A DNA stretch of 35,427 nt from Prevotella sp. (GTDB taxonomy: Bacteria > Bacteroidota > Bacteroidia > Bacteroidales > Bacteroidaceae), in the NCBI GenBank assembly GCA_017645905.1, contig JAGCNO010000157.1:1-35427 (forward strand), written 5' to 3'. The position numbers were made by a program, and so were the translations under genes. This document shows, one piece after another, positions 1-32,737 of the stretch (within the stretch, counting starts at the first letter, position 1; the number at the start of each line of letters is the position of its first letter). The notes under the pieces are model-generated. The model saw nothing but the letters and a program-made list of their open reading frames with translations. It had not been told where the DNA came from and ran no database searches.

Positions 1-72
1 CCTCCCCTACAAGGGAGGGGAGCGGCTACCGCTGACGATATGCGCAGTAACTCCCCTCCCTTGTAGGGGAGG
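1..72. repeat. 21-bp inverted repeat of a C/T-rich intergenic element
   Basis: Bases 1-21 (CCTCCCCTACAAGGGAGGGG plus A) are the exact reverse complement of bases 52-72. The 30-nt interval between them holds a smaller hairpin, GCGG-CTA-CCGC. The element is followed by GGGCTGAGGGAGGGGTC-like sequence and may extend left beyond the window. It resembles the small palindromic intergenic repeats (REP-like) common in Bacteroidales genomes. No coding potential is visible. It could act as a terminator for a gene left of the window or be a REP-like mobile remnant. Confidence 0.7.
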
Positions 73-141
73 GGCTGAGGGAGGGGTCAGTAATCAAGTT
101 TTTAATCATGTTTGCTTTCGTCTTATTCGAAAAGTTTGCTG

Positions 142-484: not shown

Positions 485-579
485 TTTTAGCGACAATGAT
501 TCCATGATGGGTAACTTCAATTCTTAAACATGAATTTCCATGAATTGCCGGGGATGGATGCTGTTTCAAAAAAGTTAAA

Positions 580-663
580 ACTACGACGTGGTTTCTACAA
601 ACTACGTCGTAGTTTTTACAAACGCCGTCGTGGTTTATACAAACGCCGACGTAGTTTAAACAA
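580..663. repeat. Palindromic 21-bp repeat tetrad, copy 1
   Basis: Four head-to-tail 21-bp units start at 580, 601, 622 and 643. Each fits ACNNCGNCGTNGTTT followed by NNACAA. The second unit with its flanks is a perfect 17-bp palindrome, AAACTACG-T-CGTAGTTT. Units differ mainly at the positions flanking the palindrome centre. A second four-unit array with the same first unit lies at 23762-23845. The period equals two turns of B-DNA, so bound proteins would sit on one face; that is inference. Confidence 0.8.
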
Positions 664-682
664 TGCATCCGACCTTTTGTTT

Positions 683-770
683 CGAAAGAACGGCTTATTC
701 TCATAGAAAGAACGGCTTTTCCTCATAGAAACAACGGCTTTTTCTACCGGAAAGAACGGCTTTTTCTATG
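683..770. repeat. 22-bp GAACGGCTT repeat tetrad, copy A
   Basis: Four direct 22-bp units start at 683, 705, 727 and 749. All carry the core AAGAACGGCTT or AACAACGGCTT inside an (A/C/G)GAAA...TTCT frame. A degenerate fifth unit may start at 771. The tetrad is joined to the palindromic 21-bp tetrad by a linker containing ATGCATCCGACCTTT, which is conserved at the second composite copy near 23846-23864. It lies upstream of the dipeptidase promoter and is not part of a gene. Confidence 0.8.
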
Positions 771-866
771 AGAGGGAACGGTATACAGATTTAACATGCC
801 TCCTGATGACCGATTCGGGATATACGGGAAATAATCGGAATCCTCTTAAAAAATCATGACGATGGT

Positions 867-5050: not shown

Positions 5051-5086
5051 TAAATAGTAAATAGTAAATCGTCAAATAGTAAATAA
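5051..5086. repeat. AT-rich short tandem repeat before mnmA
   Basis: A run of TAAATAGTAAATAG/TAAATCGTCAAATAG units forms most of the mnmA leader. The same family occurs at about 6892-6918. It also occurs inside coding sequence in mnmA itself (5494-5530) and in the GH43 gene (26541-26570). Confidence 0.7.
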
Positions 5087-5090
5087 CGTG

Positions 5091-6188
5091 ATGATTGATA
5101 AGCGCATAGCCGTATTGCTCTCGGGTGGTGTAGACAGTAGCGTGGTGCTCTGTCTGCTGGCCCGTCAGGGGCTGCACCCCGACTGTTTCTACATAAAGAT
5201 TGGCCCGGAGGAGGACGAGGAGTGGGACTGCTCGTCGGAGGAGGACATGGAGATGGCCACCGCCGTGGCCCGCAAATACGGCTGTAGGCTGGAGGTCGTC
5301 GACTGCCACCGCGAGTATTGGGAACAGGTGACGACCTACACCATGGAGAAGGTGAAGGCTGGACTGACGCCCAACCCCGACGTAATGTGCAATAGGCTGA
5401 TAAAGTTCGGAGCCTTCCACGAGAAGTGCGGTCACGACTACGACCTCATCGCCACGGGGCACTATGCCCAGACAGAGGTGGAAGTGGTTTCTGAAATCGT
5501 AAATGGTAAATCGTTAAATCGTAAATTAAAATGGCTTTGCACCAGTCCTGACCCCGTAAAGGACCAGACCGACTTTCTGGCTCAGATATACGGCTGGCAG
5601 CTGGAGAAGGCATTCTTCCCCATCGGCCATCTGATGAAGGACGAGGTGCGGCGTATAGCCGAGGAGGAACACTTGGTGAACGCCCGGCGGCGTGACTCGC
5701 AGGGCATCTGTTTCTTAGGAAAGATTGACTACGATGAATACCTGCGGCGCTACCTCGGCGAGCTACCCGGCGACGTGCTGGAGTTAGAGACAGGGAAGCT
5801 GATTGGGAAGCATCGTGGGCACTGGTTTTACACCATCGGACAGCGAAAGGGTCTGGGGTTCGGAGGAGGGCCTTGGTTTGTCGTGAAAAAGGATGTAGAA
5901 CAGAACCTTATTTACGTCTCTAACGGTTACGACCCCGCCACGGTCTACAAAAAGGACTTCCTTGTCCGTGATTTCCACAGCATCAACGGCATGATGCCTT
6001 CAGAGGATATTACTTTTAAGATACGCCACACGCCCGAGTTCCATCGTGCGAAGTTCGTCACGATGGGCGACGGTAAATATTCCATTCAGTCGGAGGATAA
6101 CATCCACGGTGTTGCACCGGGGCAGTTCTGCGTCGTCTATGATGCTGACCACCACCGCTGTTATGGCTCGGGGGAAATCAGCCTTTAA
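5091..6188 (+). CDS. mnmA: tRNA-uridine 2-sulfurtransferase MnmA
   Basis: A 365-aa cytoplasmic enzyme that thiolates U34 at position 2 in tRNAs for Lys, Glu and Gln, using ATP and a persulfide. The PP-loop SGGVDSS is at residues 11-17. The catalytic cysteines are Cys100 (NPDVMCN) and Cys207 (GICFLG), with the family stretches ATGHYA, KDQTDFLAQ and FYTIGQRKGLG. The ATG at 5091 is preferred over the GTG just before it. Residues about 135-148 (EIVNGKSLNRKLKW) sit between ATGHYAQ and the KDQT motif and are encoded by an AT-rich repeat like the one in the leader. This looks like a tolerated in-frame insertion in a surface loop. The stop codon directly abuts the stop of the convergent PAP2 gene with no gap. 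Confidence 0.95.
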   Translation: MIDKRIAVLLSGGVDSSVVLCLLARQGLHPDCFYIKIGPEEDEEWDCSSEEDMEMATAVARKYGCRLEVVDCHREYWEQVTTYTMEKVKAGLTPNPDVMCNRLIKFGAFHEKCGHDYDLIATGHYAQTEVEVVSEIVNGKSLNRKLKWLCTSPDPVKDQTDFLAQIYGWQLEKAFFPIGHLMKDEVRRIAEEEHLVNARRRDSQGICFLGKIDYDEYLRRYLGELPGDVLELETGKLIGKHRGHWFYTIGQRKGLGFGGGPWFVVKKDVEQNLIYVSNGYDPATVYKKDFLVRDFHSINGMMPSEDITFKIRHTPEFHRAKFVTMGDGKYSIQSEDNIHGVAPGQFCVVYDADHHRCYGSGEISL

Positions 6189-6919: not shown

Positions 6920-7678
6920 TCAGATAATTTCTATCTGTGCGGTCTCAACCCAGCCTACCTTTCCGTCGGGCATACGAATCTCTTTCCAGTCCTGCATGGT
7001 GTCGTCGGTGACGGTGACCTTGGTACCCTCATGAAGGATGAAGAGGTCGGTGCCAGAAGTTGAGGGCGTGCTCTTCACGGGCACGGCCGACTGGATGATG
7101 ATGGCGCCGTCGCGATGGTTGAGTGTCTGCTTCTGCTGCCAGGCAAAGAGGTTGGCCAGCAGGAAAAATAGTAGGGCAAGCAGACCACCGAAGAAGCCCA
7201 CCTTACGCAGCCATACGGGTGAGGCAAAGAGATAGAGCAGGGCGAGGACGATGGTCAGGGCCAGCAGCACAAGCGACATGCGTGCCCAGCCGTCGACACT
7301 CATCTGGTTGACCAGCGAGCGGTACCATGTGACGGCGAAGAACTCCGACTGCGGCACCATCTTGTCGATGGTCTTGGTACGGGCCAGCTGCAGGTTGAAA
7401 CGTATGTCGGCATCACCGGGCGAAAGCAGCAGAGCACGCTCGTAGGCCAGGATGGCTTGGGTAATCTCTTCCGTGCGGTAGTAGGCATTGCCGAGGTTGT
7501 AGTACACGTCGGCACTCTGGCCCTCCTTCAAGAGCTCAGAATACAGCTCAATGGCCTTCTGATAGTTGCCCTGAACGTAGGCGCTGTCAGCATCGGCCTT
7601 GGTCTGCGCACTTGCGCTGGCGCTAAATAAGAAATAAGAAATAAGAAATAATAAACCTATCGGGGATGTTTTTCTCAT
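6920..7678 (-). CDS. batE: BatE-like TPR/SH3 protein
   Basis: A 252-aa membrane-anchored protein of the BatE type (Bacteroides aerotolerance locus). Residues 1-25 are a signal peptide. TPR units follow around 27-100 (YVQGNYQKAIELYSELL and NLGNAYYRTEEITQAILAYERAL). Two membrane helices lie near 135-185, and a C-terminal SH3-like domain ends DGKVGWVETAQIEII. The ATG at 7678 is preferred over an upstream TTG. Odd point: the hydrophobic core of the signal peptide (LLFLISYFLFS) is encoded by a GAAATAA tandem repeat (7627-7656), apparently recruited intergenic DNA. It lies downstream of batD but is separated from it by an unrelated dockerin protein gene. Bat proteins are thought to form a VWA/TPR envelope complex, but their molecular role is unsettled. 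Confidence 0.82.
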   Translation of the reverse strand: MRKTSPIGLLFLISYFLFSASASAQTKADADSAYVQGNYQKAIELYSELLKEGQSADVYYNLGNAYYRTEEITQAILAYERALLLSPGDADIRFNLQLARTKTIDKMVPQSEFFAVTWYRSLVNQMSVDGWARMSLVLLALTIVLALLYLFASPVWLRKVGFFGGLLALLFFLLANLFAWQQKQTLNHRDGAIIIQSAVPVKSTPSTSGTDLFILHEGTKVTVTDDTMQDWKEIRMPDGKVGWVETAQIEII

Positions 7679-10398: not shown

Positions 10399-10486
10399 AG
10401 AAAGAACGGCTTATTCAGATCGAAAGAACGGCTTTTTCTCATGGAAAGAACGGCTTATTCAAATCGAAAGAACGGCTTAATGTCTG
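10399..10486. repeat. 22-bp GAACGGCTT repeat tetrad, copy B
   Basis: Four direct units start at 10399, 10421, 10443 and 10465. Each has the core GAAAGAACGGCTT, and the variation is confined to the last nine bases and the first base of each unit. The array lies between the coaW promoter and its ATG at 10514, so it should be transcribed as part of the 5' leader. No palindromic 21-bp tetrad accompanies this copy. Confidence 0.8.
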
Positions 10487-10513: not shown

Positions 10514-11338
10514 ATGGGAAAGATAATAGGAATTGACGTGGGCATATCGACCACGAAGATTGTGGGGCTGCGCGACGGCAAGCCGTCGGCCCCGCTGCGT
10601 ATCACTGCCAACGACCCCGTTACGTCGCTTTACGGAGCCTTTGGCAAGTATCTCCACGATAACAACGTGCCCCTCGAGGAAGTGGAGCACGTTATGCTCA
10701 CCGGTGTGGGTGCGGCATACGTGAAGAACGATGTCTACGGCGTTGCCACGAGCCGCTGCGACGAGTTTGTGGCCGACGCACTGGGTGCCCGCTATGAGTC
10801 GCATATCGACCACGCCATTGTCGTCTCGATGGGTACGGGAACATCATTCGTCATGTGTCACGGCGATGATATCCGGCATATTGGAGGTATCGGCATTGGC
10901 GGAGGAACACTTCAGGGTCTTTCGCGTATCATGCTGAATACGAGCGATATAAAACAGGTGTCGGCACTCGCCATGCAGGGTGACATCAGCCACATTAACC
11001 TGCTCATCGGCGACATCTCGGCACAGCCGCTGCCCGGTCTGCCTATGGAGGCCACGGCCAGCATCTTTGCCCGTGCTCAGAACGATGCGTCGAAGGAGGA
11101 CATCGCCTGCGGCATTATCGCTATGGTGCTGCAGAGCATCGGGTCGGCAGCGGTGCTGGCCGCACAGGGTACTGACTGCCGCGACATGGTGCTCATCGGT
11201 AACCTGTCGCTGCTTCCTCAGTGCAAGGAAATCTTCCCCGCTCTGGAGAAACTTTATAAAGTGCGGTTCCACATTCCCAAGTACTCGGAGTATTGCACGG
11301 CCATCGGTGCGGCATTGGCCTACGGGAAGAAGGTCTAA
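10514..11338 (+). CDS. coaW: Type II pantothenate kinase (ASKHA fold)
   Basis: A 274-aa cytoplasmic kinase of the type II PanK/BadF-like ASKHA family; it would phosphorylate pantothenate as the first step to coenzyme A. Visible motifs are the N-terminal phosphate loop IIGIDVGISTTKIV, the VMLTGVGAAYV segment, and the GTGTSFV and HIGGIGIGGGTLQGLSRIML stretch shared with eukaryotic and staphylococcal PanK. Near the C-terminus come the VLIGNLS and YCTAIGAALAYG elements. The usual DxGGTxxK phosphate loop is altered to DVGISTTK. The gene is 18 nt upstream of prmC and probably co-transcribed. The substrate is inferred from family resemblance; a BadF-type activator ATPase is less likely because of the PanK-specific glycine motif. 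Confidence 0.78.
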   Translation: MGKIIGIDVGISTTKIVGLRDGKPSAPLRITANDPVTSLYGAFGKYLHDNNVPLEEVEHVMLTGVGAAYVKNDVYGVATSRCDEFVADALGARYESHIDHAIVVSMGTGTSFVMCHGDDIRHIGGIGIGGGTLQGLSRIMLNTSDIKQVSALAMQGDISHINLLIGDISAQPLPGLPMEATASIFARAQNDASKEDIACGIIAMVLQSIGSAAVLAAQGTDCRDMVLIGNLSLLPQCKEIFPALEKLYKVRFHIPKYSEYCTAIGAALAYGKKV

Positions 11339-16423: not shown

Positions 16424-16462
16424 TTGTTTATTGTCTATTGTTTATTGTTTATTGTCTATAAA
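16424..16462. repeat. TTTATTGTC short tandem repeat
   Basis: Alternating TTTATTGTC/TATTG units fill the 18-nt gap and encode the last residues and stop of the amidase (DNKQ). The same repeat precedes the RND fusion-protein gene at 32443-32471. Confidence 0.7.
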
Positions 16463-17356
16463 TCGTTTTGTCAAGTCTTGATAGCTGTCTATCCGTCGGT
16501 CGCGGAGGAATGGCCACCAGCGTCTCACCTGTTCCGAGCGGTTCATGTCTATGCTGACGATGATGCTCTCTTCCTCGTCCTCCGATGCCTCGTAGTACAG
16601 CTCGCCTTGCGGGCCGCAGACGAAGGAGGAGCCCCAGAAGAGTGCTGCGGAAGCAAATTCTTCATTCTTCATTCTTAATTCTTCATTTTTCATTCTTAAT
16701 TTTTCACTTCCCACGCGGTTCACCGCCACCACAGGCAGTCCGTTGGCTACGGCATGTCCTCGCATAACCAGCTGCCAGGCCTGTCGCTGCCGCTGTTGCT
16801 CCTCGGGCGTGTCGTTAGGGTCGTAGCCGATGGCGGTGGGGTAGATAAGCAGTTCGGCTCCATTCAGGGCCATGAGGCGTGCAGCCTCAGGGTACCACTG
16901 ATCCCAGCAGACGAGCACTCCTAAGCGTCCCACGGAGGTATCGATGGGCTGGAAGCCCAGGTCGCCTGGCGTGAAGTAGAACTTCTCGTAGTATCCCGGG
17001 TCGTCGGGGATGTGCATCTTGCGGTATTTCCCCGCAATCGTCCCGTCTTTCTCAAACACCACGGCGGTGTTGTGGTACAGTCCCGTGGCGCGTTTCTCGA
17101 AGAGCGATGTCACCAGCACCACACCCGCCTCCCGTGCCAGCCGTCCGTAGATGTCGGTCGACGGGCCCGGAATGGTCTCGGCGAGGTCGAAGCGGCTGAC
17201 GTCCTCCTCGTCGCAGAAGTAGAGCGTGTTGTGCAGTTCTTGCAGCACCACCAGTTCGGCGCCCCGCCGTGCCAGGTCGCGCACGCCGTCGCAGAGGCGC
17301 TCAATATTCTTCAGCCGGTCGTCGGTGTTATGCTGTTGCAGGAATCCTATGTTCAT
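16442..17356 (-). CDS. aguB: N-carbamoylputrescine amidase-like nitrilase
   Basis: A 304-aa cytoplasmic carbon-nitrogen hydrolase closest to AguB, which converts N-carbamoylputrescine to putrescine, CO2 and ammonia. The nitrilase triad is Glu40 (LQELHNTLYF), Lys113 (YRKMHIPDDP) and Cys150 (VLVCWDQWYPE), and the AguB-type motifs FYFTPGD and WGSSFVCGPQGE are present. The ATG at 17356 was chosen over a TTG four codons earlier. Residues about 217-234 (SEKLRMKNEELRMKNEE) are encoded by an AATTAAGAATGA-type tandem repeat (16660-16710) that reads as an in-frame insertion just before the FWGSSF motif. It is first in the aguB-porin-glnN-AAA/CYTH run and has a consensus promoter. No agmatine deiminase is adjacent in the window. 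Confidence 0.87.
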   Translation of the reverse strand: MNIGFLQQHNTDDRLKNIERLCDGVRDLARRGAELVVLQELHNTLYFCDEEDVSRFDLAETIPGPSTDIYGRLAREAGVVLVTSLFEKRATGLYHNTAVVFEKDGTIAGKYRKMHIPDDPGYYEKFYFTPGDLGFQPIDTSVGRLGVLVCWDQWYPEAARLMALNGAELLIYPTAIGYDPNDTPEEQQRQRQAWQLVMRGHAVANGLPVVAVNRVGSEKLRMKNEELRMKNEEFASAALFWGSSFVCGPQGELYYEASEDEEESIIVSIDMNRSEQVRRWWPFLRDRRIDSYQDLTKRFIDNKQ

Positions 17357-17456: not shown

Positions 17457-17539
17457 AGGCCGTTCCTTCAATAAGAAAAGACTACCTTTTCTACGAGAAA
17501 TGGTAGTCTTTTCTATGAGAAATGGTAGTCTTTTCTCAG
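17457..17539. repeat. 22-bp repeat array E with a swapped core
   Basis: Three 22-bp units (17474-17495 inverted, 17496-17517 and 17518-17539 direct) keep the AGAAA...TTTTCT frame of the other arrays but carry ATGGTAGTC in place of GAACGGCTT. A degenerate GAACGGC-type unit in inverse orientation (GGCCGTTCCTTC, 17458-17469) precedes them, so the array may also be four units long. Confidence 0.65.
17474..17514. terminator. Hairpin formed by opposed 22-bp units
   Basis: AGAAAAGACTACC (17474-17486) pairs with GGTAGTCTTTTCT (17502-17514). After one T/T mismatch, TTTCT pairs with AGAAA around the loop ACG. The result is an 18-bp stem with U-rich ends downstream of the BspA-like gene, and it could terminate that gene's transcript. 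Confidence 0.55.
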
Positions 17540-17591: not shown

Positions 17592-20297
17592 CTAACGCAC
17601 AGAGCGCACGAACGCATGGTTATAACAATCGTCGTACCACAAGCGCGCGCCGCCCGAATCGAAGAGGAGGCGGAAACCGTAGGGATAGCCGTCAGACGTA
17701 AGTGTGCACGACCAGTAGTCGCCGTACGTCCCGACGTTGTCCAACTGCATGCCATTCACGAAGTGGCCGGCAGCGGGGAGGAACACAGAGCAGCCATTAG
17801 TGCCGGTGAACTTATAACCATTCACGCCGTTCTGCGTAGTCCATTCAGAGGTGGTATTATTAAGGAGCTCCTCAATCTGGTCCATCGAAGGAGCATCGTA
17901 ATCCAGCGCATCATAGAAGATGTAGTGGTCGCCATAGTCCTCCGGCTTGCTTGCCCCCACATTGCAGCAGGCCCACTTCGTGCCGCTGGGCAGGCCCAGG
18001 TCTATCCAGTGCGGGTGGTTTGCGTCAGAGCAGGCGGTGTCAGTATTTTCCTCTGGGGTGTCAACATCTTTTCCGGCCATGATGTCGATGATGGTGGCGA
18101 TGTCGGCCACGTCGACTGTCTTGTCCTCATTCACGTCAGCTTCAGGGTCGTAGGTACCTTTCGCCATCACGTCGATGATAGCGGCAATATCGGCCACGTC
18201 GACCGCACCGTCGCCGTTTACGTCGCCCTTCAACCAAGTCTCCACAATCGTCTGGAACTTGTTCCACGCCGATGTGGCTTCATATTTTTCCTTTGTTCCC
18301 CTTGGGACGTAGAGGGTGGCGGTGGTGAAAGAACCATTGTTAGAGAATACATTTTCATTGATTTCAAAAGGATCAGTAATCAACGAGGTGACGGAGGTCA
18401 GGCTGCTACAATTCTTAAAAGCATTGGGTGCTATGCTCGTCACGCTGGCAGGAATCGTTATGGAAGTCAGGCCAGAATATGCGAAGGCTAATTCTCCTAT
18501 GCTCGTAACGCTGTTAGGAATCGTAATAGAGGCCAGGCTGGTACAATCGGAGAAAACAGACCTCCCTATGCTTGTCACGCTATTGGGAATCGTTACGGAA
18601 GTCAGGCCGCTGCAACCAGAGAAAGAAGCGTTACTAATGCTCGTCAGACTATTAGGAATCGTTATGGAGGTCAGACCGCGGCAGTAGGTGAAAACACCCT
18701 TTCCTAAGTACGTCACGTTGTCAGGAATGGTGATGGAGGTCAGACCGCGGCAGCCATAGAAAGCATAGTCTTCTATGCTCGTCACGTTGTCGGGAATCTC
18801 GATGGAGGTCAGGCCTCTACAATTATAGAAAGTATATTCTCCTATGGTCGTCAAACTATTGGGAATCGCAACGGAGGTCAGACCGGTACATTCGCGGAAA
18901 ACGTGGCCTCCCAAGCTCGTCACGCTATTAGGAATCGAGATGGAGGTCAGGCCGGTACAGTTAGAGAAAGCACTGTTTCCTATGCTCGTCACACTATTAG
19001 GAATCGTGAGGGAGGTCAGGCCGCTGCAAGCAAAGATAGCGTAGTCTTCAATGGTCGTCACGCTGCTGGGAATGTTTACTGATGTCAGGCCGCTACATTC
19101 ATAGAAAGCAGCGTGTTTTATGCTCTTCACGCTGTTCGGAATGGTGACGGAGGTTTGGTCGCTGCAATTATAGAAAGCATATTCTCCAATACTTGTCACG
19201 CTGAATCTTGTTCCGCCGTAGTATACGGTGCTGGGAATGGCTACGTTACCTGAGTAGCTTCCGCCGCCTTTTTTGCTGCCGCCTTGGCTATTGGTCACTT
19301 CAGCCTCATCAGGATAAAGGTTATAGTAAATGCCGTTAATCTCAACGGTCTCCAGCTCATCGATCCACTCGAACTTATTCCACGCCGGCGTGGCTTCGTA
19401 TTTCTCCTTCGCTCCTTTGAGAACGATGAGGGTGGCGATGATAAAGTTATCATTCTCGTCATAAAATACATTTTCAGGGATTTCAAAAGGATCAACAATC
19501 AAGGAAGTGACGGAAGCCAGGTTGCTACAATTATAGAAAGTATAGCTTCCTATACTTGTCACGCTGTTGGGAATCGTAACGGAGGTCAGGCCGCTGCAAC
19601 CATAGAAAGCAGCGGTTCCTATGCTCGTGACGCTGTTGGGAATCGTGATGGAGGTCAGGCCGCTGCAATTTAAGAAAGCATAGCTTCCTATGCTCTTCAC
19701 ACCGTAAGGTATTACGGTATTCATACATCCTGAAATAAGTTCGGAGTTTTGTTTCTTGATGATAGCATTACAACTATTTCGAGAATCGAAATACGTGTTA
19801 CCGCTTTCCACTTTAATGGAGGTCAGGCCGCTGCAACCACCGAAAGGATTATCGTTCCCTATGCTTGTCACACTTTTGGGAATTGTGACAGAGGTCAGAC
19901 CAGTACAACCATTGAAAGCCGAGCTTCCTATTGTTTTCACGCTATTAGGAATAGTGATGGAGTTCAGGTTTTTGCATCTAAAGAAAGCATAATCGTTGAT
20001 GCTCGTCACACTGTTTGGAATCGTGACGGAAGTTACGAGGCCATAAAAGAAAGCATATTTTCCTATTGTCGTCACGTTGTAAGTCGTTCCGTCGTAGAAG
20101 ACCGATTCGGGGATGGTTACACTGCCTGAGTATCTGACACTCATACCATCGGGATAGCCACCCCAGTAATTTGTCACTTCGGCCTCCTTCGTGCTTGAGT
20201 CCAGGTTGTAGTAGATGAGGTCAATCATCACAGGATCCGCTGCACTGTCCATCACGGGCAGGAGCATCAGCATGAATAATAAAATTAGGTTTTTCAT
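17592..20297 (-). CDS. BspA-like LRR_5 secreted protein with dockerin pair
   Basis: A 901-aa secreted protein. After a signal peptide (about 1-20) come two LRR superdomains of BspA/LRR_5 type, with 23-residue units like SVTIPNSVTSIGxxAFxxCSGLT. Each superdomain opens with an IYYNL...EAEVTN strand region and closes with a TSLIxDPFEIxENVF...EKYEATxAWNKF segment, so the whole block is duplicated. A dockerin-type pair follows near 695-745 (DVNGDGAVDVADIAAIIDVMAKG and DVNEDKTVDVADIATIIDIMAG). A C-terminal domain begins WIDLGLPSGTKWACCNVGASKPEDYGD and ends YNHAFVRSVR, of the type seen in Fibrobacter/Bacteroides paralogous surface proteins. BspA-like repeats are linked to host or matrix binding, but the ligand here is unknown. 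There is no T9SS-type C-terminal domain. Confidence 0.85.
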   Translation of the reverse strand: MKNLILLFMLMLLPVMDSAADPVMIDLIYYNLDSSTKEAEVTNYWGGYPDGMSVRYSGSVTIPESVFYDGTTYNVTTIGKYAFFYGLVTSVTIPNSVTSINDYAFFRCKNLNSITIPNSVKTIGSSAFNGCTGLTSVTIPKSVTSIGNDNPFGGCSGLTSIKVESGNTYFDSRNSCNAIIKKQNSELISGCMNTVIPYGVKSIGSYAFLNCSGLTSITIPNSVTSIGTAAFYGCSGLTSVTIPNSVTSIGSYTFYNCSNLASVTSLIVDPFEIPENVFYDENDNFIIATLIVLKGAKEKYEATPAWNKFEWIDELETVEINGIYYNLYPDEAEVTNSQGGSKKGGGSYSGNVAIPSTVYYGGTRFSVTSIGEYAFYNCSDQTSVTIPNSVKSIKHAAFYECSGLTSVNIPSSVTTIEDYAIFACSGLTSLTIPNSVTSIGNSAFSNCTGLTSISIPNSVTSLGGHVFRECTGLTSVAIPNSLTTIGEYTFYNCRGLTSIEIPDNVTSIEDYAFYGCRGLTSITIPDNVTYLGKGVFTYCRGLTSITIPNSLTSISNASFSGCSGLTSVTIPNSVTSIGRSVFSDCTSLASITIPNSVTSIGELAFAYSGLTSITIPASVTSIAPNAFKNCSSLTSVTSLITDPFEINENVFSNNGSFTTATLYVPRGTKEKYEATSAWNKFQTIVETWLKGDVNGDGAVDVADIAAIIDVMAKGTYDPEADVNEDKTVDVADIATIIDIMAGKDVDTPEENTDTACSDANHPHWIDLGLPSGTKWACCNVGASKPEDYGDHYIFYDALDYDAPSMDQIEELLNNTTSEWTTQNGVNGYKFTGTNGCSVFLPAAGHFVNGMQLDNVGTYGDYWSCTLTSDGYPYGFRLLFDSGGARLWYDDCYNHAFVRSVR

Positions 20298-20514: not shown

Positions 20515-23500
20515 CTATGGCTCGACGTCCTTTCCAGCCATGATGTCGATGATGGTGGCAATGTCGGCCACGTCGACCGTCTTGTCGTTGTTCACGTCGG
20601 CCTTGTCTTTGTATTCGGGAGCCTTTCCTGCCATCACGTCGATGACGGTGGCAATGTCGGCCACGTCGACAGCACCGTCGTCGTTTACGTCGCCCATGAG
20701 AGCGATGCCTTCGTAAAGGTCCATGTCTCCGTTTTCCCAGTACATCATGACCGTCCAGCCACGAGCCGTAGCGGCTGCCACCTGTGCTTTGGTCATGACG
20801 TTACCTTCGTTCGGACTTTTTTTATAAACAAACAAGTAATATGGAAATTCTTCATCGGTGTTTATCGGCAGACCGGCGATGAAGGCATCCATGTTTTTGC
20901 CCTTTAGCTGGTTCATATAGCATTGCAGCTGAGTCAGTGCCGTGTTCGACACATCGAGTTTGATGAGCTGGTTTCTTTGGCACCACAGCGTACTCAGTTT
21001 TGTGTTCATAGACAGGTCGAGTTCGGTAAGCTGGTTGTCGCTGCAGTACAAAGATGTCAGTGCCGTAAAAAATTCTACGCCCTTGAGGGTCTTGATGCCT
21101 TTTTCCTCGACGTTTATCCAATTCACCGTCTGTATCTCGTCCTCGGTAATCTTGCCGTCCTTGCCATAGTCCTGTGCGAGCAGGTAGTTGCGGAAGGCCG
21201 CGTCGGGGAAGTTCTTCTCGTTGATGGCATAGCTGACCTCGTAGGGTTCCCAGTCCTTGCCGTTATACCAGTAGACTGTCCAGCCTTTGACCTTTGCGGC
21301 TGCCACCTGTTCTTCGGTGATGACGTTGCCCTCGTCCGAGGTGTTGTAATTCACGTAGAAGTAATGAATGTCATTGGTGGTGTTCTTCGGCAGGCTGGCT
21401 ACGAGAGCCTCCATCCTGTCGCCCTTAATCTGGTTCTGGTGGCAGTACAACCCAGTCAGTGCCTTGTTGTTCGACACGTCGAGGGCGGTGAGATCGTTGT
21501 TAAAGCATGACAAAGATGTCAGTGCCGTGTTCTTTGAAACATCGAGGGCGGTGAGCTGGTTGTTGACGCAATGCAACGAAGTCAGTGCCGTGTTGTTCGA
21601 GACATCGAGGGCGGTGAGCTGATTGTTGTCACATTCCAAGGATTCCAGTGCCGTGTTCTTCGACACGTCGAGGGCGGTGAGCGGGTTGTCGGAGCAGTAC
21701 AACCCAGTCAGTGCCGCGTTCTTTGATACATCGAGGTTTGTAAGCTGGTTGGACCTGCAGGTCAGCGTAGTCAGCGCATAGAAAAACTCTATACCCTTGA
21801 GTCTCTTTATGTTTTGATTTGAGACGTTAAGCGACTTAATCGCTTTAATCTCCCCATCGGTGAGCAGGCCGTCCTTGCCATAGTCCTGGGCAAGGAGGTA
21901 GTTGCGGAAATTGTCATCGGGGAAGTTCTCTGAATCGATGGCGATGATATCCGAGTAGGATTCCCATGCCGTCCCGTTATAACAATAGGGTGTCCAGCCA
22001 CGAGCCTTTACGGCTGCCATCTGCTCTGCGGTGATGACGTTGCCTTCGTCCGGGTCATTATACTTTACGTAGAATTTATGTTCAACGGTCGCATCATTGT
22101 TCATCGGCAGACTGGCGATGAGGCTGTCCATGCGGTCGGTAATCTTGTTCATGGCGCAGTTCAGTTCTTTCAGCTTTGTATTCTCCGACACGTCTATGTA
22201 GGTAAGCTTATTGCCAGCACAGTCCAAGGTTTCCAGTTCTGGATTCCCAGACACGTCTATGGAGGTTAGCCGGTTGGCAGCACAAAACAAGTCTTTCAGT
22301 TTTGGGTTCGGCACTTCTAATTCGGTGAGCTTGTTGTAGCCACACACTAACGAAGTCAGTCTCGTGAAATACTTTATACCATCGAGGTCCTCTATGCCTT
22401 TATCATTAACGTTAATGAAGTTAGTCCCATGAAGTTCCTCCCAGACGAACTTGCCGTCCCTGCCATAGGGGAGGTTGAGGAGGGCGTTTTGGAAGGCAGA
22501 ATCGTGGAAGTAATACCAATAAATGGCGATGCCATCCTCATAGGGTTTTCTCTCTCCAAAGACATTCCAATAAACTGTCCAGCCTTTTGCCTTTGCAGCC
22601 TCTGCCTGTGCAGCGCTAAAGTAGTTTCCCTCGTCAGCATCGTTGTCTACCACAAATAATTCTATCTCAGTACTGGAATTAGAGTACGACGGCAGACTGG
22701 CGATAAGGGCATCCATATTGTCACCAAAGATGTTGTTATGATAGCAGATACATCTTTCCAGTTTCGTGTTCTTCGACAGGTCTAGGGCTGTAAGCCTGTT
22801 TCTCTCACAATAGAGAAGATACAGTGCCGTATTCTTCGACAGGTCGAGTTCAGTGAGCTGATTATTATTGCAGTATAATTGTAGCAGTTTCGTGTTCTTC
22901 GACAGGTTGAGGGTGTTGAGTTGGTTGTAGCGGCAATCTAAATTTGTCAGTGCCGTATTCTTCGACACATCAAGGGCGGTGAGATGGTTGCCGGAACAGT
23001 ACAAAAGTCCTAATGCCGTGTTCTTCGACACGTCAAGTTCGGTAAGCCTGTTGGAAAGACATTCGAATTGATATAGTTTCGTGTTCTTCGACAGGTCGAG
23101 GGCGGTGAGCTGGTTGGCGGCGCAGAACAAATATCTTAATGCCGTGTTCTTCGACAGATCGAGTTCGGTAAGCATGTTCTTAGAACACTGTAAATCAATC
23201 AGTTTCGTGTTCTTCAACAGGTCGAGGGCGATGAGTTGGTTATTGTTGCATGTCAAGCGTTCTAATTTCGTGTTCTTCGACAAGTCGAGGAAGCGGAGCT
23301 TGTTGTATTCGCAGTTCAAATATACCAAGGCAGTGAAGTGTTCTATACCTCCCAGAGACCAGATGCCTTTTCCTCTCACTGAGATGTCTTTGATGTTGGC
23401 AATCTCACTATTGGTGAGCACGCCGTCACGGCCGTAGTCCTGGGCGAGCAGGTAGTTGCGGAAGTTGTCATCGGGGAAGTTCGTACTGTTGATTTCTACG

Positions 23501-23562
23501 TCGGCCTTTGCGCCCGTGGCGATGGCTACGAGGGCGGCGACAATAAGGAAAAACTGTTTCAT
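20515..23562 (-). CDS. Four-block LRR surface protein with dockerin pair, C-terminally truncated
   Basis: A 1015-aa secreted protein with signal peptide MKQFFLIVAALVAIATGAKA. Four blocks each begin with an FPDDNFRNYLLAQDYGxDGxLTxxEI cap (second copy degenerate). LRR units of about 21 residues follow (LTxLDVSKNTALTxLxCxxNQ). Each block closes with a segment like DALIASLPxN...DEGNVxTxxQxAAAKAKGWTVYW. The C-terminus is a dockerin-type pair (DVNDDGAVDVADIATVIDVMAGK and DVNNDKTVDVADIATIIDIMAGK) ending DVEP. The gene stops at a TAG immediately followed, in frame, by the start of an FGE-sulfatase domain, so the protein appears to have lost a C-terminal domain. The cap resembles that of LRR proteins with EF-hand-like DxDG turns. 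The binding partner is unknown. Confidence 0.83.
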   Translation of the reverse strand: MKQFFLIVAALVAIATGAKADVEINSTNFPDDNFRNYLLAQDYGRDGVLTNSEIANIKDISVRGKGIWSLGGIEHFTALVYLNCEYNKLRFLDLSKNTKLERLTCNNNQLIALDLLKNTKLIDLQCSKNMLTELDLSKNTALRYLFCAANQLTALDLSKNTKLYQFECLSNRLTELDVSKNTALGLLYCSGNHLTALDVSKNTALTNLDCRYNQLNTLNLSKNTKLLQLYCNNNQLTELDLSKNTALYLLYCERNRLTALDLSKNTKLERCICYHNNIFGDNMDALIASLPSYSNSSTEIELFVVDNDADEGNYFSAAQAEAAKAKGWTVYWNVFGERKPYEDGIAIYWYYFHDSAFQNALLNLPYGRDGKFVWEELHGTNFINVNDKGIEDLDGIKYFTRLTSLVCGYNKLTELEVPNPKLKDLFCAANRLTSIDVSGNPELETLDCAGNKLTYIDVSENTKLKELNCAMNKITDRMDSLIASLPMNNDATVEHKFYVKYNDPDEGNVITAEQMAAVKARGWTPYCYNGTAWESYSDIIAIDSENFPDDNFRNYLLAQDYGKDGLLTDGEIKAIKSLNVSNQNIKRLKGIEFFYALTTLTCRSNQLTNLDVSKNAALTGLYCSDNPLTALDVSKNTALESLECDNNQLTALDVSNNTALTSLHCVNNQLTALDVSKNTALTSLSCFNNDLTALDVSNNKALTGLYCHQNQIKGDRMEALVASLPKNTTNDIHYFYVNYNTSDEGNVITEEQVAAAKVKGWTVYWYNGKDWEPYEVSYAINEKNFPDAAFRNYLLAQDYGKDGKITEDEIQTVNWINVEEKGIKTLKGVEFFTALTSLYCSDNQLTELDLSMNTKLSTLWCQRNQLIKLDVSNTALTQLQCYMNQLKGKNMDAFIAGLPINTDEEFPYYLFVYKKSPNEGNVMTKAQVAAATARGWTVMMYWENGDMDLYEGIALMGDVNDDGAVDVADIATVIDVMAGKAPEYKDKADVNNDKTVDVADIATIIDIMAGKDVEP

Positions 23563-23643: not shown

Positions 23644-23761
23644 TAATTCTTGGAAAGAAATAACCATTATGAACATAATTATGTCCATAAATGCGGTGTC
23701 CCTGCTAAATATATATCTAAGGAGTCAAGGAGTGGCTGCGCCGTGAATCAAAAAAGTCAAA

Positions 23762-23845
23762 ACTACGACGTGGTTTCTACAAACTACGTCGTAGTTTTGA
23801 CAAACGTCGTCGTGGTTTCTACAAACTACGACGTGGTTTTAACAA
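23762..23845. repeat. Palindromic 21-bp repeat tetrad, copy 2
   Basis: Four 21-bp units start at 23762, 23783, 23804 and 23825. Unit 1 is identical to unit 1 of the copy at 580, and unit 2 differs by one base. The linker to the following 22-bp tetrad (ATGCATCCGACCTTT) is also conserved. Confidence 0.8.
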
Positions 23846-23864
23846 TGCATCCGACCTTTGGTTT

Positions 23865-23952
23865 AGAAAGAACGGCTTTTTCTCGGAGAAAGAACGGCTT
23901 TCTCTCATAGAATAAGCCGTCCTTTCTGGTCGAAAGAACGGCTTAAAGTCCA
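23865..23952. repeat. 22-bp GAACGGCTT repeat tetrad, copy C, one unit inverted
   Basis: Units start at 23865, 23887, 23909 and 23931. The third is inverted (AATAAGCCGTCCTTTCT). The array ends 4 nt from the stop codon of the alcohol dehydrogenase gene. Confidence 0.8.
23913..23945. terminator. Hairpin from the inverted third unit of array C
   Basis: TAAGCCGT-C-CTTTC (23913-23926) pairs with GAAAG-A-ACGGCTTA (23932-23945), a 13-bp stem with one C/A mismatch and a 5-nt loop. It lies 11 nt beyond the stop of the alcohol dehydrogenase gene and could end the upstream multi-gene transcript. The U-tract is poor. Confidence 0.45.
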
Positions 23953-23956
23953 GGGG

Positions 23957-25141
23957 CTATCCCCGTGCCATGCGGTAGATGGCCTCCATGTCGCTGGCAT
24001 TGAGCACTTTAAAGGCTCCGCAGGCGCGCTGGTAGTCTCGGCTGCACTTGCGGGTCATCTCCTTGATCTCCTCGTCGGTGATGTCGCGGCCTATGAGCTC
24101 CTTGATGTTGATGGGCATGCCGATGGCGTGGTAGAAGCGCTCCATGGCCTCGATGCCCTTGATGGCCGTTCCCTCGGGGTCGGTGAAGTCGTTGGGCACG
24201 TCCATGACATTGACGGCGAAACGTACGAAGCGCGGGAGATTCTCGTGCATGACGTAGCGTGCCCAGCTGGGCCATACGGCGGCGAGGCCTGCGCCGTGGG
24301 TGACGTCGAACATGCCGCTGAGCTCGTGCTCCAGCTGGTGGGTAGACCAGTCGCCGAGGTTGCGGTAGCCGGTCACGTCGTTGTGGGCCAGGCTGCCGCC
24401 CCACATGATCTGTGCGCGGTTGCGGTAGTCCTCAGGATTTTTCAGCACGGCAAAGATGCAATCCTTCATGGTGCGCATGAGTGTCTCGGCGATGTTGTCG
24501 GTCAGGGTCATGTCGCACTCGGTGTTGAAGTATCGCTCCATGGTGTGCATCATGATGTCGGTGACGCCGGCAGCTGTCTGGTAGGGTGGGAGGGTGAAGG
24601 TGCGGCAGGGGTTCATGATGGCGAACTTGGGGCGCGAGATGTTGTTGGAGTAGCCCAGCTTCACATCGCCGTCCTCGTTGGTGATGACGCTGGCCTCGCT
24701 CATCTCGCTGCCTGCGGCGGGGATGGTGAGCACAGCGGCGACGGGGAGCACCTGCTCAGGCTCTGCATTGCCGAGGTAGAAGTCCCAGACGTTGCCAGAG
24801 TATGGCACTCCGTAAGCGATGCACTTCGACGAGTCGATGACGCTGCCTCCGCCCACGGCAAGGATGAAGTCGACGCCCTCCTTGCGGCAGAGCTCGATGC
24901 CCTGCTGGGCGAGCGACAGGCGCGGGTTGGGCACCACGCCGCCGAGCTTGACGAAGGGGATGCCGCCCTCAGCGAGCAGACCGCAGACCTTGTCGAGCAG
25001 ACCGGAGCGCAGGGCACTCTGTCCGCCGTAATGTACCAGCACTTTCGTGCCGCCGTATTTCTTTACCAGAGCAGCAACCTGCTCCTCACTTTGCTGGCCG
25101 AACACCACTTCTGTGGGGGCGTAGAAATTAAAGTCTTTCAT
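23957..25141 (-). CDS. Iron-containing alcohol dehydrogenase (BDH/YqhD-like)
   Basis: A 394-aa cytoplasmic NAD(P)H-dependent alcohol or aldehyde reductase of the type III iron-dependent family. The nucleotide-binding GGGS is at residues 97-100. The metal ligands are readable as Asp195 and His199 (GVTDIMMHTMERYF), His268 (THQLEHELSG) and His282 (VTHGAGLAAVWP). Length and start MKDFNFYAPTEVVFG are typical of butanol dehydrogenase-like members. The physiological aldehyde is unknown; redox balancing in fermentation is the usual role. It lies 41 nt after the esterase gene and is last in the RND-GH43-esterase-ADH run. Hairpin and repeat array C follow at its 3' end. Confidence 0.9.
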   Translation of the reverse strand: MKDFNFYAPTEVVFGQQSEEQVAALVKKYGGTKVLVHYGGQSALRSGLLDKVCGLLAEGGIPFVKLGGVVPNPRLSLAQQGIELCRKEGVDFILAVGGGSVIDSSKCIAYGVPYSGNVWDFYLGNAEPEQVLPVAAVLTIPAAGSEMSEASVITNEDGDVKLGYSNNISRPKFAIMNPCRTFTLPPYQTAAGVTDIMMHTMERYFNTECDMTLTDNIAETLMRTMKDCIFAVLKNPEDYRNRAQIMWGGSLAHNDVTGYRNLGDWSTHQLEHELSGMFDVTHGAGLAAVWPSWARYVMHENLPRFVRFAVNVMDVPNDFTDPEGTAIKGIEAMERFYHAIGMPINIKELIGRDITDEEIKEMTRKCSRDYQRACGAFKVLNASDMEAIYRMARG

Positions 25142-26420: not shown

Positions 26421-28214
26421 TTATTTGAACTGGAATTGTTTGCGAATATGTGTCTGTCCGTTCTCGTCGGTATACCGCTCTATGACGAAGCGCATGCCTT
26501 TGGGGTTTTGGATGGGGCGTCCGGAGAGGTCGTAGTATTTGCGATTTACCGGTTTACTATTTACGATTTCGTTGATGCCGTTGGCAATCTGCGAGAACTG
26601 CCAGGCGTCAAATTGTACGTTCGTGGCTTCGGTGAAGACGAAAAAGATACTTTTGATTCCTGTGAAGACTGTCGGGTCGAGGTCTATAACGTGGTCCTCA
26701 AAGCCGGTGGACGAGAACTCGAGTGTAGCAGAGGGCTTTGCTGTCTTGCTGCCGAGGCGTATCTGAAGTGTGCCAGTGCCTTTGGCTCTTAGCATGAAAG
26801 ACAGGGCTCCCTGTGTGCCGAACTCTACTTTCCGTATCATGGTCCATGCGCCTTCAGCCATCTTCACTTGCAGGTTTCGGGAGGCATCGTTGCCGAGGCT
26901 GCTGATGCTGGTGGGCTTTGAGATGTTGGTAAAGTCCTCATAGCTGATGCCTCCACAAGTGGACATGGTCTCAGCTTCCTGCAGTTTGTAAGGGTCGAGT
27001 GCCTTGATGGGGCTGACACCGGTCTTGTCAAGGGTGACTTTTCCGAGCTTCTGGTCCTCTTCCCTGACGTTTACTTTGTTGATGCCGATGGAGCGGAATC
27101 CCGATGCGCCGGTGTTCATGGTCTGTTCAAGAAGCGTGGAGTGGTAGAAGAGGTAGTAGTTGGTAGAGATGGTGGTTTGGTCGTTTGGGGCGTTGGTGGT
27201 TTGGTCGTCGTCGGGCACATATTTCTGCATGTGTGTGTGGTTGTTTCCCCATCCCATGCCGAAGTTACCTTCGTTGGGAACATACTCCCCACGATATTCC
27301 CATGAGTCGGGGTCGAGGGGCGTATCGGTGACCATGTAGCACATGCTGCATGAGGAGGGTGCCGGCTGTCCGTTGCGGCCCTCGTAGCTGTTCCAGTCGT
27401 TGCGGTCGCTCCAAGATGTGTTGTAGGTGTAGACAAACCGGTGGTTGATGATATTGAGCTCGCTGGCTTCGAAGAGGTAGGGAGCGGGGAGGTTTACGGC
27501 CTTTCCGTCGATGGCCAGCATGGTTGACTTGAGTTTTGCTATGCGTGAGTTTCCGGGCATGAGTTTGGAACCCGTGGACTGCGGGTCTCCTCCTCCGAAG
27601 GCTATCCATCCTGTCCCTTCCTCGTCGATGACCACGCCAGGGTCGAATATCCAGTTACAGGGCTTGACACCAGGCGTGTCGCCGTCAATCATGGGCTTTG
27701 AGAGCGGTGAGCGCCAGGGGCCTATGGGCGAAGAGGCTTTGAGGACTCCGATGCTGCCGCCGCTGTTGGCAAAGTAAAGAAAGAATTCGGGGTTGCCGTT
27801 GGCATCCAAACGCCAGGTGACCGAGGGTGCCCATGAGGCAGCAAATCGCCATCCCCAGCCAGAGCATAGCTTGCCTACGTCAATGGTGCCGTGGAAGGTC
27901 CAGTTGCAGAGGTCGTCGCTGGAGAAGACAACGAGCGACTTGATGTCGCCATAGCTGTTGCTGCCCGATTTGCTGTTCTTGATGAACTGCTGGCTGTCAT
28001 TGGAGCCATAGACGTAAATGCGCCCGTCGTACTGGAGGGCTGTGGGGTCGGCACAGAAGACACAGGGGCTCAGCGGGTTGCCGTTGTTCACCTCTTTGTA
28101 ATTCTTGGCAAGTGTCTGCGCCCCTGCGGGGCTAAATGATAAGTGAAGAGTGAAGATTGAAGAGTGAAGAGTGAAGAATGATAAAGCAAAAGAAAGTAAC
28201 AGTTTCTTCGACAT
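26421..28214 (-). CDS. Secreted GH43 glycosidase with CBM6-like domain
   Basis: A 597-aa exported glycoside hydrolase family 43 enzyme, likely a xylosidase or arabinofuranosidase. The signal peptide is MSKKLLLSFALSFFTLHSSI onward to GAQ. The five-bladed propeller starts at CVFCADPTAL (Asp56, probable general base), with NWIFDPGVVIDEEG and the FEASELN region as further active-site landmarks. A CBM6-like domain begins near residue 405 (KLQEAETMSTCGGI), and a tail YYDLSGRPIQNPKGM ends the protein. Three repeat-derived segments are visible. The signal-peptide core comes from GAAGAGTGAAGA repeats, QTTNAPNDQTT (about 337-347) from TGGTCGTTT repeats, and EIVNSKPVNRK (549-559) from AAATCGTAAATAGT repeats. 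It is 27 nt after the RND pump gene. Confidence 0.87.
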   Translation of the reverse strand: MSKKLLLSFALSFFTLHSSIFTLHLSFSPAGAQTLAKNYKEVNNGNPLSPCVFCADPTALQYDGRIYVYGSNDSQQFIKNSKSGSNSYGDIKSLVVFSSDDLCNWTFHGTIDVGKLCSGWGWRFAASWAPSVTWRLDANGNPEFFLYFANSGGSIGVLKASSPIGPWRSPLSKPMIDGDTPGVKPCNWIFDPGVVIDEEGTGWIAFGGGDPQSTGSKLMPGNSRIAKLKSTMLAIDGKAVNLPAPYLFEASELNIINHRFVYTYNTSWSDRNDWNSYEGRNGQPAPSSCSMCYMVTDTPLDPDSWEYRGEYVPNEGNFGMGWGNNHTHMQKYVPDDDQTTNAPNDQTTISTNYYLFYHSTLLEQTMNTGASGFRSIGINKVNVREEDQKLGKVTLDKTGVSPIKALDPYKLQEAETMSTCGGISYEDFTNISKPTSISSLGNDASRNLQVKMAEGAWTMIRKVEFGTQGALSFMLRAKGTGTLQIRLGSKTAKPSATLEFSSTGFEDHVIDLDPTVFTGIKSIFFVFTEATNVQFDAWQFSQIANGINEIVNSKPVNRKYYDLSGRPIQNPKGMRFVIERYTDENGQTHIRKQFQFK

Positions 28215-32471: not shown

Positions 32472-32649
32472 AAAACGTATTTGCTGCAAGATTTGTTGTA
32501 TAGTCAGCGTCATTTTTGAGGTTTAAGGTCAAAGGTCGGAAACGTGTAGGGAATATAGTTTGCCTGATTCCTCTATCATGGTCTGGAGTTTGGGCCGTTC
32601 TTGCTCCATTTCATTACGCAAGCGTCTCCTTCGTCGCCGAGCGCTTTCG

Positions 32650-32737
32650 ATTTGAATAAGCCGTTCTTTCGATTTGAATAAGCCGTTCTTTCGATTCGAA
32701 TAAGCCGTTCTTTCGATCCGAATAAGCCGTTCTTTCT
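32650..32737. repeat. 22-bp GAACGGCTT repeat tetrad, copy D (reverse orientation)
   Basis: Four units in inverse orientation start at 32650, 32672, 32694 and 32716. Units 1 and 2 are identical. Units 3 and 4 differ at bases 3-4 and the final base. It begins about 14 nt beyond the stop of the barrel protein gene. Confidence 0.82.

What the first reader, a model, noticed from the sequence alone, without database searches (positions are those of the whole stretch)
572..770. Composite repeat: palindromic 21-bp tetrad joined to a 22-bp tetrad
Two loci 23 kb apart (about 572-770 and 23750-23952) share a mosaic. It consists of an A-rich lead (CAAAAAAGT), four 21-bp palindromic units, a conserved linker with ATGCATCCGACCTTT, and four 22-bp units with the GAACGGCTT core. 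Both sections have four clear units, and units differ within an array while corresponding units match across loci. This suggests copying of a defined element rather than slippage. Periods of 21 and 22 bp equal two DNA turns, which would fit phased protein binding. I know of no named element with this layout.
Basis: partly seen in the sequence, partly recalled or inferred. Interest (0 to 1): 0.75.

Follow-up and report, generated by a model that had tools for sequence, protein, structure and literature searches.

The report
Phased 22-bp dyad repeat arrays (Prevotella)
The genome is sprinkled with short non-coding arrays whose units repeat every 21 or 22 letters, about two turns of the DNA helix; several related Prevotella species carry arrays with the same spacing but other sequences, which suggests docking strips for unknown DNA-binding proteins that come and go quickly in evolution.

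Summary
Both loci carry a lead, four 21-bp palindromic units, a conserved linker and a 22-bp array; 30 simulated windows came nowhere near. The wider picture differs from the finding.

The 21-bp part is a defined cassette: nine copies examined, all with four units that match best by position. The 22-bp part is an abundant separate family (761 spaced core pairs in this genome, control 0; two to six units, most often four). It is rare in the genus (2 of 299 genomes; a few rumen MAGs). Other same-genus genomes have 22-bp arrays of unrelated sequence; lag 22 is the strongest self-match in non-coding DNA of three species. Conserved dyads alternate with free spacers of nearly fixed length. Arrays differ by whole units, or are absent, between close relatives, and often sit at synteny breaks.

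Best explanation: clusters of helically phased operator-like dyads for unidentified dimeric proteins, in labile non-coding cassettes. Protein binding is inferred. The closest known element is BrickBuilt of Porphyromonas gingivalis. REP/RAYT fails: two array-bearing species lack Y1 transposase.

The parts
552..577 (+). lead of the 21-bp cassette (GGATGGATGC at 552, CAAAAAAGT at 567); GGATGGATGC is an imperfect inverse of GCATCCGACC (665) in the linker
578..661 (+). four 21-bp units, AAACNNCGNCGNNGTTT plus 4-bp spacer
   Evidence: columns
662..682 (+). linker with ATGCATCCGACCTTT (663-677)
683..789 (+). 22-bp array, four clear units (cores at 688, 710, 732, 754) and a degenerate fifth (776)
23749..23759 (+). 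lead CAAAAAAGT of the second composite
23760..23843 (+). four 21-bp units of the second composite
23844..23864 (+). linker of the second composite (ATGCATCCGACCTTT at 23845)
23865..23949 (+). 22-bp array, four units; the third core (23914) is inverted in register
10404..10478 (+). stand-alone 22-bp array, four units, between a promoter-like TACCTTTG and the gene at 10514
32658..32732 (-). stand-alone 22-bp array, four units
32603..32645 (-). recurrent module (AGCGCTCGGCGACGAAGGAGACGCTTGCGTAATGAAATGGAGC) next to the array; 8 copies near arrays in the own-genome stretches searched
17474..17536 (.). 22-bp array, about three units, with AGAAA...TTTTCT arms and a different core (GACTACC / GGTAGTC, both orientations present)

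Best explanation
The two loci are copies of a short non-coding composite: a cassette of about 125 bp with four 21-bp palindromic units, next to an array of 22-bp units. The 22-bp array belongs to a family of very roughly 240 mostly intergenic arrays in this genome (my estimate from 761 spaced pairs, not a count). It is this species' version of a wider class in the genus: arrays of dyad-symmetric units repeated every 21-23 bp, about two helical turns, whose sequences differ between species. The most likely working is that each unit is an operator-like site for a dimeric DNA-binding protein, and that the constant spacing puts neighbouring dimers on one face of the helix. The arrays do not look like fixed regulatory sites of particular genes. 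They are present in one close relative and absent in another, differ by whole units, and their repeated sequence seems to serve as a substrate for recombination. Shown: dyads, spacing, free spacers, narrow distribution of each family, copy number and presence/absence differences, association with synteny breaks in one species pair. Inferred: protein binding, the identity of the proteins, and how cassettes are copied to new sites.
For: Abundance: 398 + 363 spaced core pairs, reversed-pattern control 0 + 0. Same period, other sequences: G006 46 and G024 29 matches to their own arrays, none shared among G000, G006 and G024 (40 candidates scored of 131 and 41; some arrays match more than once); G024 pattern 29 pairs, control 0; G026 family 68 places, G003 30, none in the other 117 of 119 genomes. 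Lag 22 is the top lag in non-coding DNA of G000, G026 and G016, second in G024 and G004, and not among the top six in 20 genomes of other families. Dyad symmetry of 22-bp consensus units 0.61-0.65 v 0.50-0.55 shuffled in six genomes; 14-bp arrays differ from shuffled by -0.05 to +0.04. Constraint at columns outside the search core: G000 GAA and TTC 90-99% v spacer 52-69%; G006 TTT 96-100% v five spacer columns 30-55%. Spacing, distinct pairs: G000 197 at 22 bp, 2 at 21, 1 at 23; G026 29 of 32 at 22; G024 27 at 22, 18 at 44, 1 at 23 of 57. Neighbouring units can be in opposite orientation at exactly 22 bp (13 of 135 pairs), as expected if a symmetric dimer reads them. Lability.
Against: No protein was identified and no binding was shown. 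Spacing is not absolute: G006 has 12 at 21 and 8 at 23 beside 123 at 22. Amplification by whole units keeps a period without selection, so fixed spacing alone does not prove binding. Dyad symmetry is modest: p<0.05 singly in 8 of 51 arrays of G000, 7 of 31 of G026, 23 of 129 over six genomes, and arrays of one family are not independent. G009 has 7-bp arrays instead of a 22-bp signal; in pooled pieces of 13 other same-genus genomes lag 22 is not among the top six. No orientation preference relative to genes in G000, so no regulatory role is indicated.
Confidence: 0.5

Rival explanations
1. Neutral minisatellites: an ancestral dyad was amplified by slippage or unequal recombination and spread by gene conversion; the 22-bp period reflects the mutation mechanism and nothing binds it.
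For: Whole-unit copy number differences between close relatives; spacer pentamers recur as reverse complements far above expectation (0.0255 v 0.0042, 191 spacers), as template switching between the arms would give; no clear positional or orientation preference in G000; 7-bp arrays are common too.
Against: Columns differ sharply in constraint outside the search core in G000 and G006. Unrelated sequences share the same period and tend to be dyads. The 21-bp cassette keeps four units in 9 of 9 copies examined.
Confidence: 0.3
2. Non-autonomous transposable elements (MITE-like) moved by an IS transposase, with internal repeats, as proposed for BrickBuilt.
For: The 21-bp cassette has a defined lead and trailer with an imperfect inverted match (GGATGGATGC / GCATCCGACC) and position-matched units; presence/absence at orthologous sites for 22-bp arrays.
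Against: No clear terminal inverted repeat for the 22-bp arrays: CTCNGAG-like ends in 15 of 70 (left) and 10 of 70 (right), about 1 expected each by shuffling; AAAGTC at the right in 7 of 70, 0.4 expected, without an excess of its inverse at the left. No target duplication was recognised by eye. An IS with matching ends was not looked for.
Confidence: 0.15
3. RNA-level elements (hairpins, terminators or 3' processing signals).
For: Units can pair; in G026 arrays lie between convergent genes more than expected (16 of 29 v 0.25 of intergenic bases).
Against: The G024 unit conserves AAACGTTT, a palindrome without a loop that cannot make an RNA hairpin by itself. In G000 three arrays lie between a promoter-like TAnnTTTG (motif recalled) and a start codon. 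No Rfam match at gathering scores in the window.
Confidence: 0.05

Closest known systems
BrickBuilt, a 23-bp minisatellite inside a MITE of Porphyromonas gingivalis (PMC4596501)
   Same: Intergenic arrays of units of about two helical turns, leader and tail modules, found in one species and a close relative, repeat-number differences between strains, conserved and free positions within the unit
   Different: 19 loci with 1-22.8 repeats and IS5-type inverted ends in BrickBuilt; here roughly ten times more loci (estimate), two to six units in 70 arrays, no clear inverted ends on the 22-bp arrays, several families in G026, and the same period in related species with other sequences
REP/BIME sequences of RAYT (Y1 transposase) systems (recalled)
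   Same: Dispersed, palindromic, mostly intergenic, narrow distribution of each family
   Different: No Y1 transposase match in array-bearing G024 and G026, only a sub-threshold one in G000; units are 21-23 bp in tandem
Iterons and multi-operator clusters (recalled)
   Same: Several sites of about 20 bp phased at two turns
   Different: Hundreds of chromosomal copies, not tied to one gene in the window; no match in the plasmid and phage collections

Membership tests
BrickBuilt MITE | tandem unit of about 23 bp in intergenic DNA with leader and tail | tested here: met
   21-bp cassette with lead and linker in 9 of 9 copies examined; arrays outside called genes: 47 of 51 in G000, 29 of 29 in G026. 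Leader and tail were not found on the stand-alone 22-bp arrays
BrickBuilt MITE | IS5-type terminal inverted repeats | tested here: not met
   No shared inverted ends around 70 22-bp arrays beyond CTCNGAG in a minority; the 21-bp cassette has only an imperfect inverted match. IS5 ends themselves were not searched
BrickBuilt MITE | target site duplications | tested here: inconclusive
   Flanks of nine composites and of the arrays printed looked at by eye, no consistent duplication
REP/RAYT | a Y1 transposase gene in genomes that carry the repeats | tested here: not met
   PF01797: no match in G024 and G026 (both 99% complete); sub-threshold in G000; over the cut-off in G004, G006, G009, G016
Bacterial minisatellite (VNTR) | tandem unit above 10 bp with copy number differences between close relatives | tested here: met
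   3 v 4 units; one-unit and about two-unit differences
CRISPR array | identical repeats separated by unique spacers of similar length, cas genes | tested here: not met
   Spacers are 5 bp and recur in both orientations, 67 types among 191; cas genes were not searched
Intrinsic terminator | placement and orientation at gene 3' ends | tested here: not met
   G000: 17 same, 12 opposite at 3' ends; 25 same, 19 opposite at 5' ends. G026 does show convergent enrichment
Phage or plasmid element | presence on phages, viral contigs or plasmids | tested here: not met
   No exact match to two-unit patterns of three families in viral contigs; none to the window's array in plasmids or to its composite in phages. 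The short core pair alone hit 4 viral contigs, none with these arms and spacers
Operator cluster for a dimeric DNA-binding protein | sequence-specific binding by a protein | not testable with these tools
   Only sequence-level constraint was shown

The most novel reading that the evidence does not exclude
Prevotella species carry fast-evolving DNA-binding proteins, each with tens to hundreds of phased dyad arrays scattered over the chromosome, that act as chromosome-organising or recombination-directing sites, with site sequences replaced between species while the two-turn geometry is kept.
Probability: 0.2. Interest if true: 0.85.

Novelty: new variant of a known kind. Interest (0 to 1): 0.6.

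Why it matters
If the reading is right, a common gut and rumen genus holds a class of non-coding DNA in which geometry is kept while sequence turns over between species. That would point to rapidly changing DNA-binding proteins and would predict which intergenic regions are prone to rearrangement. Even under the neutral reading, the arrays are ready-made markers for strain typing and a natural experiment on how short inversions and unit changes arise.

Tried and rejected
Rejected readings: REP/RAYT; phage or plasmid origin; known RNA family; terminators in G000; the composite as the basic unit.

Led nowhere or mended: a search for terminal inverted repeats on the 22-bp arrays. Array positions along the complete genome G024: one stretch without arrays of its main family (about 1.37-2.12 Mb) has a hand-estimated chance of 0.07 and the origin was not located; the signs printed flip loci that were probably not turned, so I do not use them. 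One search aligned four composites in the wrong orientation; one search replaced it. One search counted pairs of near-palindromic cores on both strands (58 of 61 in G026); one search counts distinct pairs (29 of 32). In one search the 55 pairs of the 21-bp cassette are still read from both strands (9 copies can give 27), and some G006 pairs may be. One search left out two very short pieces (L102, L104) of the 20 fetched.

Literature: searches returned no paper; others (20 listed of 528; 9; 5 of 6; 15 of 61) returned lists in which I saw nothing beyond BrickBuilt that describes such arrays. Of PMC4596501 I read the abstract and sections 5, 7 (part 1 of 2) and 8. PMC5771137 and PMC2267715 were seen as listings only. 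Iterons, REP/BIME features and the TAnnTTTG promoter motif are recalled.

Full report
What is there. The window is contig C30 of a draft genome of 3.40 Mb in 181 contigs, 87.5% complete. The closest named DNA seen is a contig of a Prevotella MAG from sheep abomasum, 90% identical over 5.5 kb to another contig of this genome. The two loci of the finding are as described: lead, four 21-bp units, linker, 22-bp array. The first lies upstream of a C69 peptidase gene (938-2653); the second lies between a leucine-rich-repeat protein gene with a dockerin domain (20515-23562) and an iron-containing alcohol dehydrogenase gene (23957-25141). Nothing about these genes explains the arrays.

The 21-bp cassette. 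One search scored 40 of 303 candidates; nine places match the 21-bp part, and all nine have four units with 17-bp AAACNNCGNCGNNGTTT dyads, the A-rich lead and a recognisable linker. Units match best by position (diagonal 0.87-0.94, off-diagonal 0.80-0.86). The lead GGATGGATGC is an imperfect inverse of GCATCCGACC in the linker. Seven of the nine abut a 22-bp array. This supports copying of a defined element.

The 22-bp family. Two cores at 22-bp spacing, up to two mismatches, occur at 398 + 363 places in the own genome, with 0 + 0 for the reversed control. Seventy distinct arrays have 2, 3, 4, 5 and 6 units in 6, 9, 29, 19 and 7 cases. From these I estimate about 240 arrays; this is not a direct count. 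Of 241 distinct same-strand neighbours within 66 bp, 197 are at 22 bp, 2 at 21, 1 at 23, 10 at 44, 7 at 66 and 24 elsewhere. Neighbours in opposite orientation lie exactly in register in 13 of 135 pairs. Spacer pentamers recur as reverse complements: the chance that two spacers are reverse complements is 0.0255, against 0.0042 expected from independent columns; simple reversal is seen at 0.0001, as expected (191 spacers of 67 types). Small inversions between the arms would produce this.

A class in the genus. With the pattern read exactly, 2 of 299 same-genus genomes match: this one (532 pairs) and one with a single pair whose spacer looks unrelated. With one mismatch, 1 of 60 relatives matches, the own genome itself. 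Tandem-repeat and lag searches of other same-genus genomes find 22-bp arrays of other sequence. G006 and G024 each have their own family (46 and 29 matches, none shared with each other or with this genome). G026 has several families, one of them (TTATACA-N4-TGTATAA-N4) at 68 places, found also in its close relative G003 (30) and in none of the other 117 of 119 genomes searched. In non-coding DNA, lag 22 is the strongest self-match in G000, G026 and G016 and second in G024 and G004. G009 has a 7-bp signal instead, and in pooled pieces of 13 other same-genus genomes lag 22 is not among the top six. Pooled pieces of 20 genomes of other families show no 22-bp signal, though some have single 22- or 23-bp arrays. 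The pieces of G026, G016, G004 and G009 were chosen for contig size, those of G000 for their arrays. Composite arrays are not peculiar to the window: in G026, L226:7655-7913 and L230:4069-4379 are two copies of three arrays in series, and two TTATACA arrays are flanked by 23-bp arrays.

Constraint. In G000 the columns just outside the search core (GAA before it, TTC after it) are 90-99% conserved while the spacer is 52-69%. In G006 the TTT outside the core is 96-100% and five spacer columns are 30-55%. G024 keeps AAACGTTT at 22-bp steps with mostly free bases between. Core columns themselves are inflated by the search. Distinct pairs are at 22 bp in 29 of 32 (G026), and at 22 or 44 in 45 of 57 (G024); G006 is looser, with 12 at 21 and 8 at 23 beside 123 at 22. 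Consensus 22-bp units are more dyad-symmetric than shuffled ones in all six genomes tested (0.61-0.65 v 0.50-0.55), but only 23 of 129 arrays reach p<0.05 singly. A conserved dyad, a free spacer and a nearly fixed length suggest a site read by a symmetric protein with a phasing requirement. This step is inference.

Placement. In G000, 47 of 51 arrays are outside called genes; the 41 that could be placed fall as 15 divergent, 21 co-directional, 5 convergent, against 0.31, 0.48 and 0.21 of intergenic bases. In G026, 16 of 29 are convergent, 12 co-directional and 1 divergent, against 0.25, 0.55 and 0.19 (genes called by a simple script). Orientation relative to genes is not clearly biased in G000.

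Turnover. A sister contig (90% identity) has four units where this genome has three, with nearly identical flanks and one replaced spacer. At another orthologous site this genome has a five-unit array between a conserved promoter-like sequence and a gene, and the sister contig has none. For G026 and G003, eight pieces beside TTATACA arrays were searched and seven found their counterpart at 95-99% identity; the eighth, non-coding, did not. Two of the seven loci keep the array in G003, with one and about two units fewer; five have no array of this family there. Homology stops on the array side, at the array or within about 270 bp of it, in six of the seven loci, and in none of the seven on the other side within the 1.5 kb fetched. 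Two of the six are the two sides of one G003 junction: DNA beside one G026 array is joined to DNA beside another, 88 kb away, through a 23-bp array that flanks both in G026. The seventh locus is collinear apart from a gene present only in G026, some 200 bp from the array. Of two further break ends met while following these, one (near 103.3 kb of G026) is next to arrays and one (near 271.9 kb) is not next to a clear array. Both genomes are drafts; misassembly seems unlikely at repeats this short and divergent but is not excluded.

Comparison. BrickBuilt of P. gingivalis is the nearest described element: a 23-bp minisatellite with leader and tail inside a MITE, species-restricted, with strain differences in repeat number (PMC4596501, abstract and sections 5, 7 part 1 and 8 read). 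The present arrays resemble it, but I do not file them as members: shared inverted ends were looked for and not found on the 22-bp arrays. REP/RAYT is rejected.

Verdict. A real and widespread class of repeat, larger than the finding suggested, best read as phased operator-like dyads in labile cassettes (0.5), with neutral minisatellites as the main rival (0.3). The mended counts do not change these odds.

Noticed in passing
window 1-90: Paired GC-rich palindromic repeats (CTCCCCTCCCTTGTAGGGGAGGGG type) at the contig start, a different repeat from the arrays.
   Followed up: no
window 5051-5085, 5494-5526, 7625-7655, 16424-16459, 16657-16706, 28142-28181: Seven-bp tandem arrays (TAAATAG, AAATCGT, AAATAAG, TTGTTTA, ATTCTTC, AGTGAAG); similar arrays are common in the other stretches and in G009.
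   Followed up: partly
window 18388-19203 and 20515-23562: Tandem repeats of 63-69 bp inside genes; the second gene codes for leucine-rich repeats with a C-terminal dockerin-like domain.
   Followed up: partly
G024, about 1.37-2.12 Mb: A stretch of the complete genome without arrays of its main family (positions); suggestive only, origin and terminus not located.
   Followed up: partly
L117, L066 (G064, MAG RUG424): 22-bp arrays with the same GAACGGCTT core but different arms and spacers (AAGAGGGGCTCTT).
   Followed up: no
L253 8227-8303 and 9633-9753 (genome of another family): 23-bp arrays (CTCACAAGTTTGTCAG type) outside the genus.
   Followed up: no
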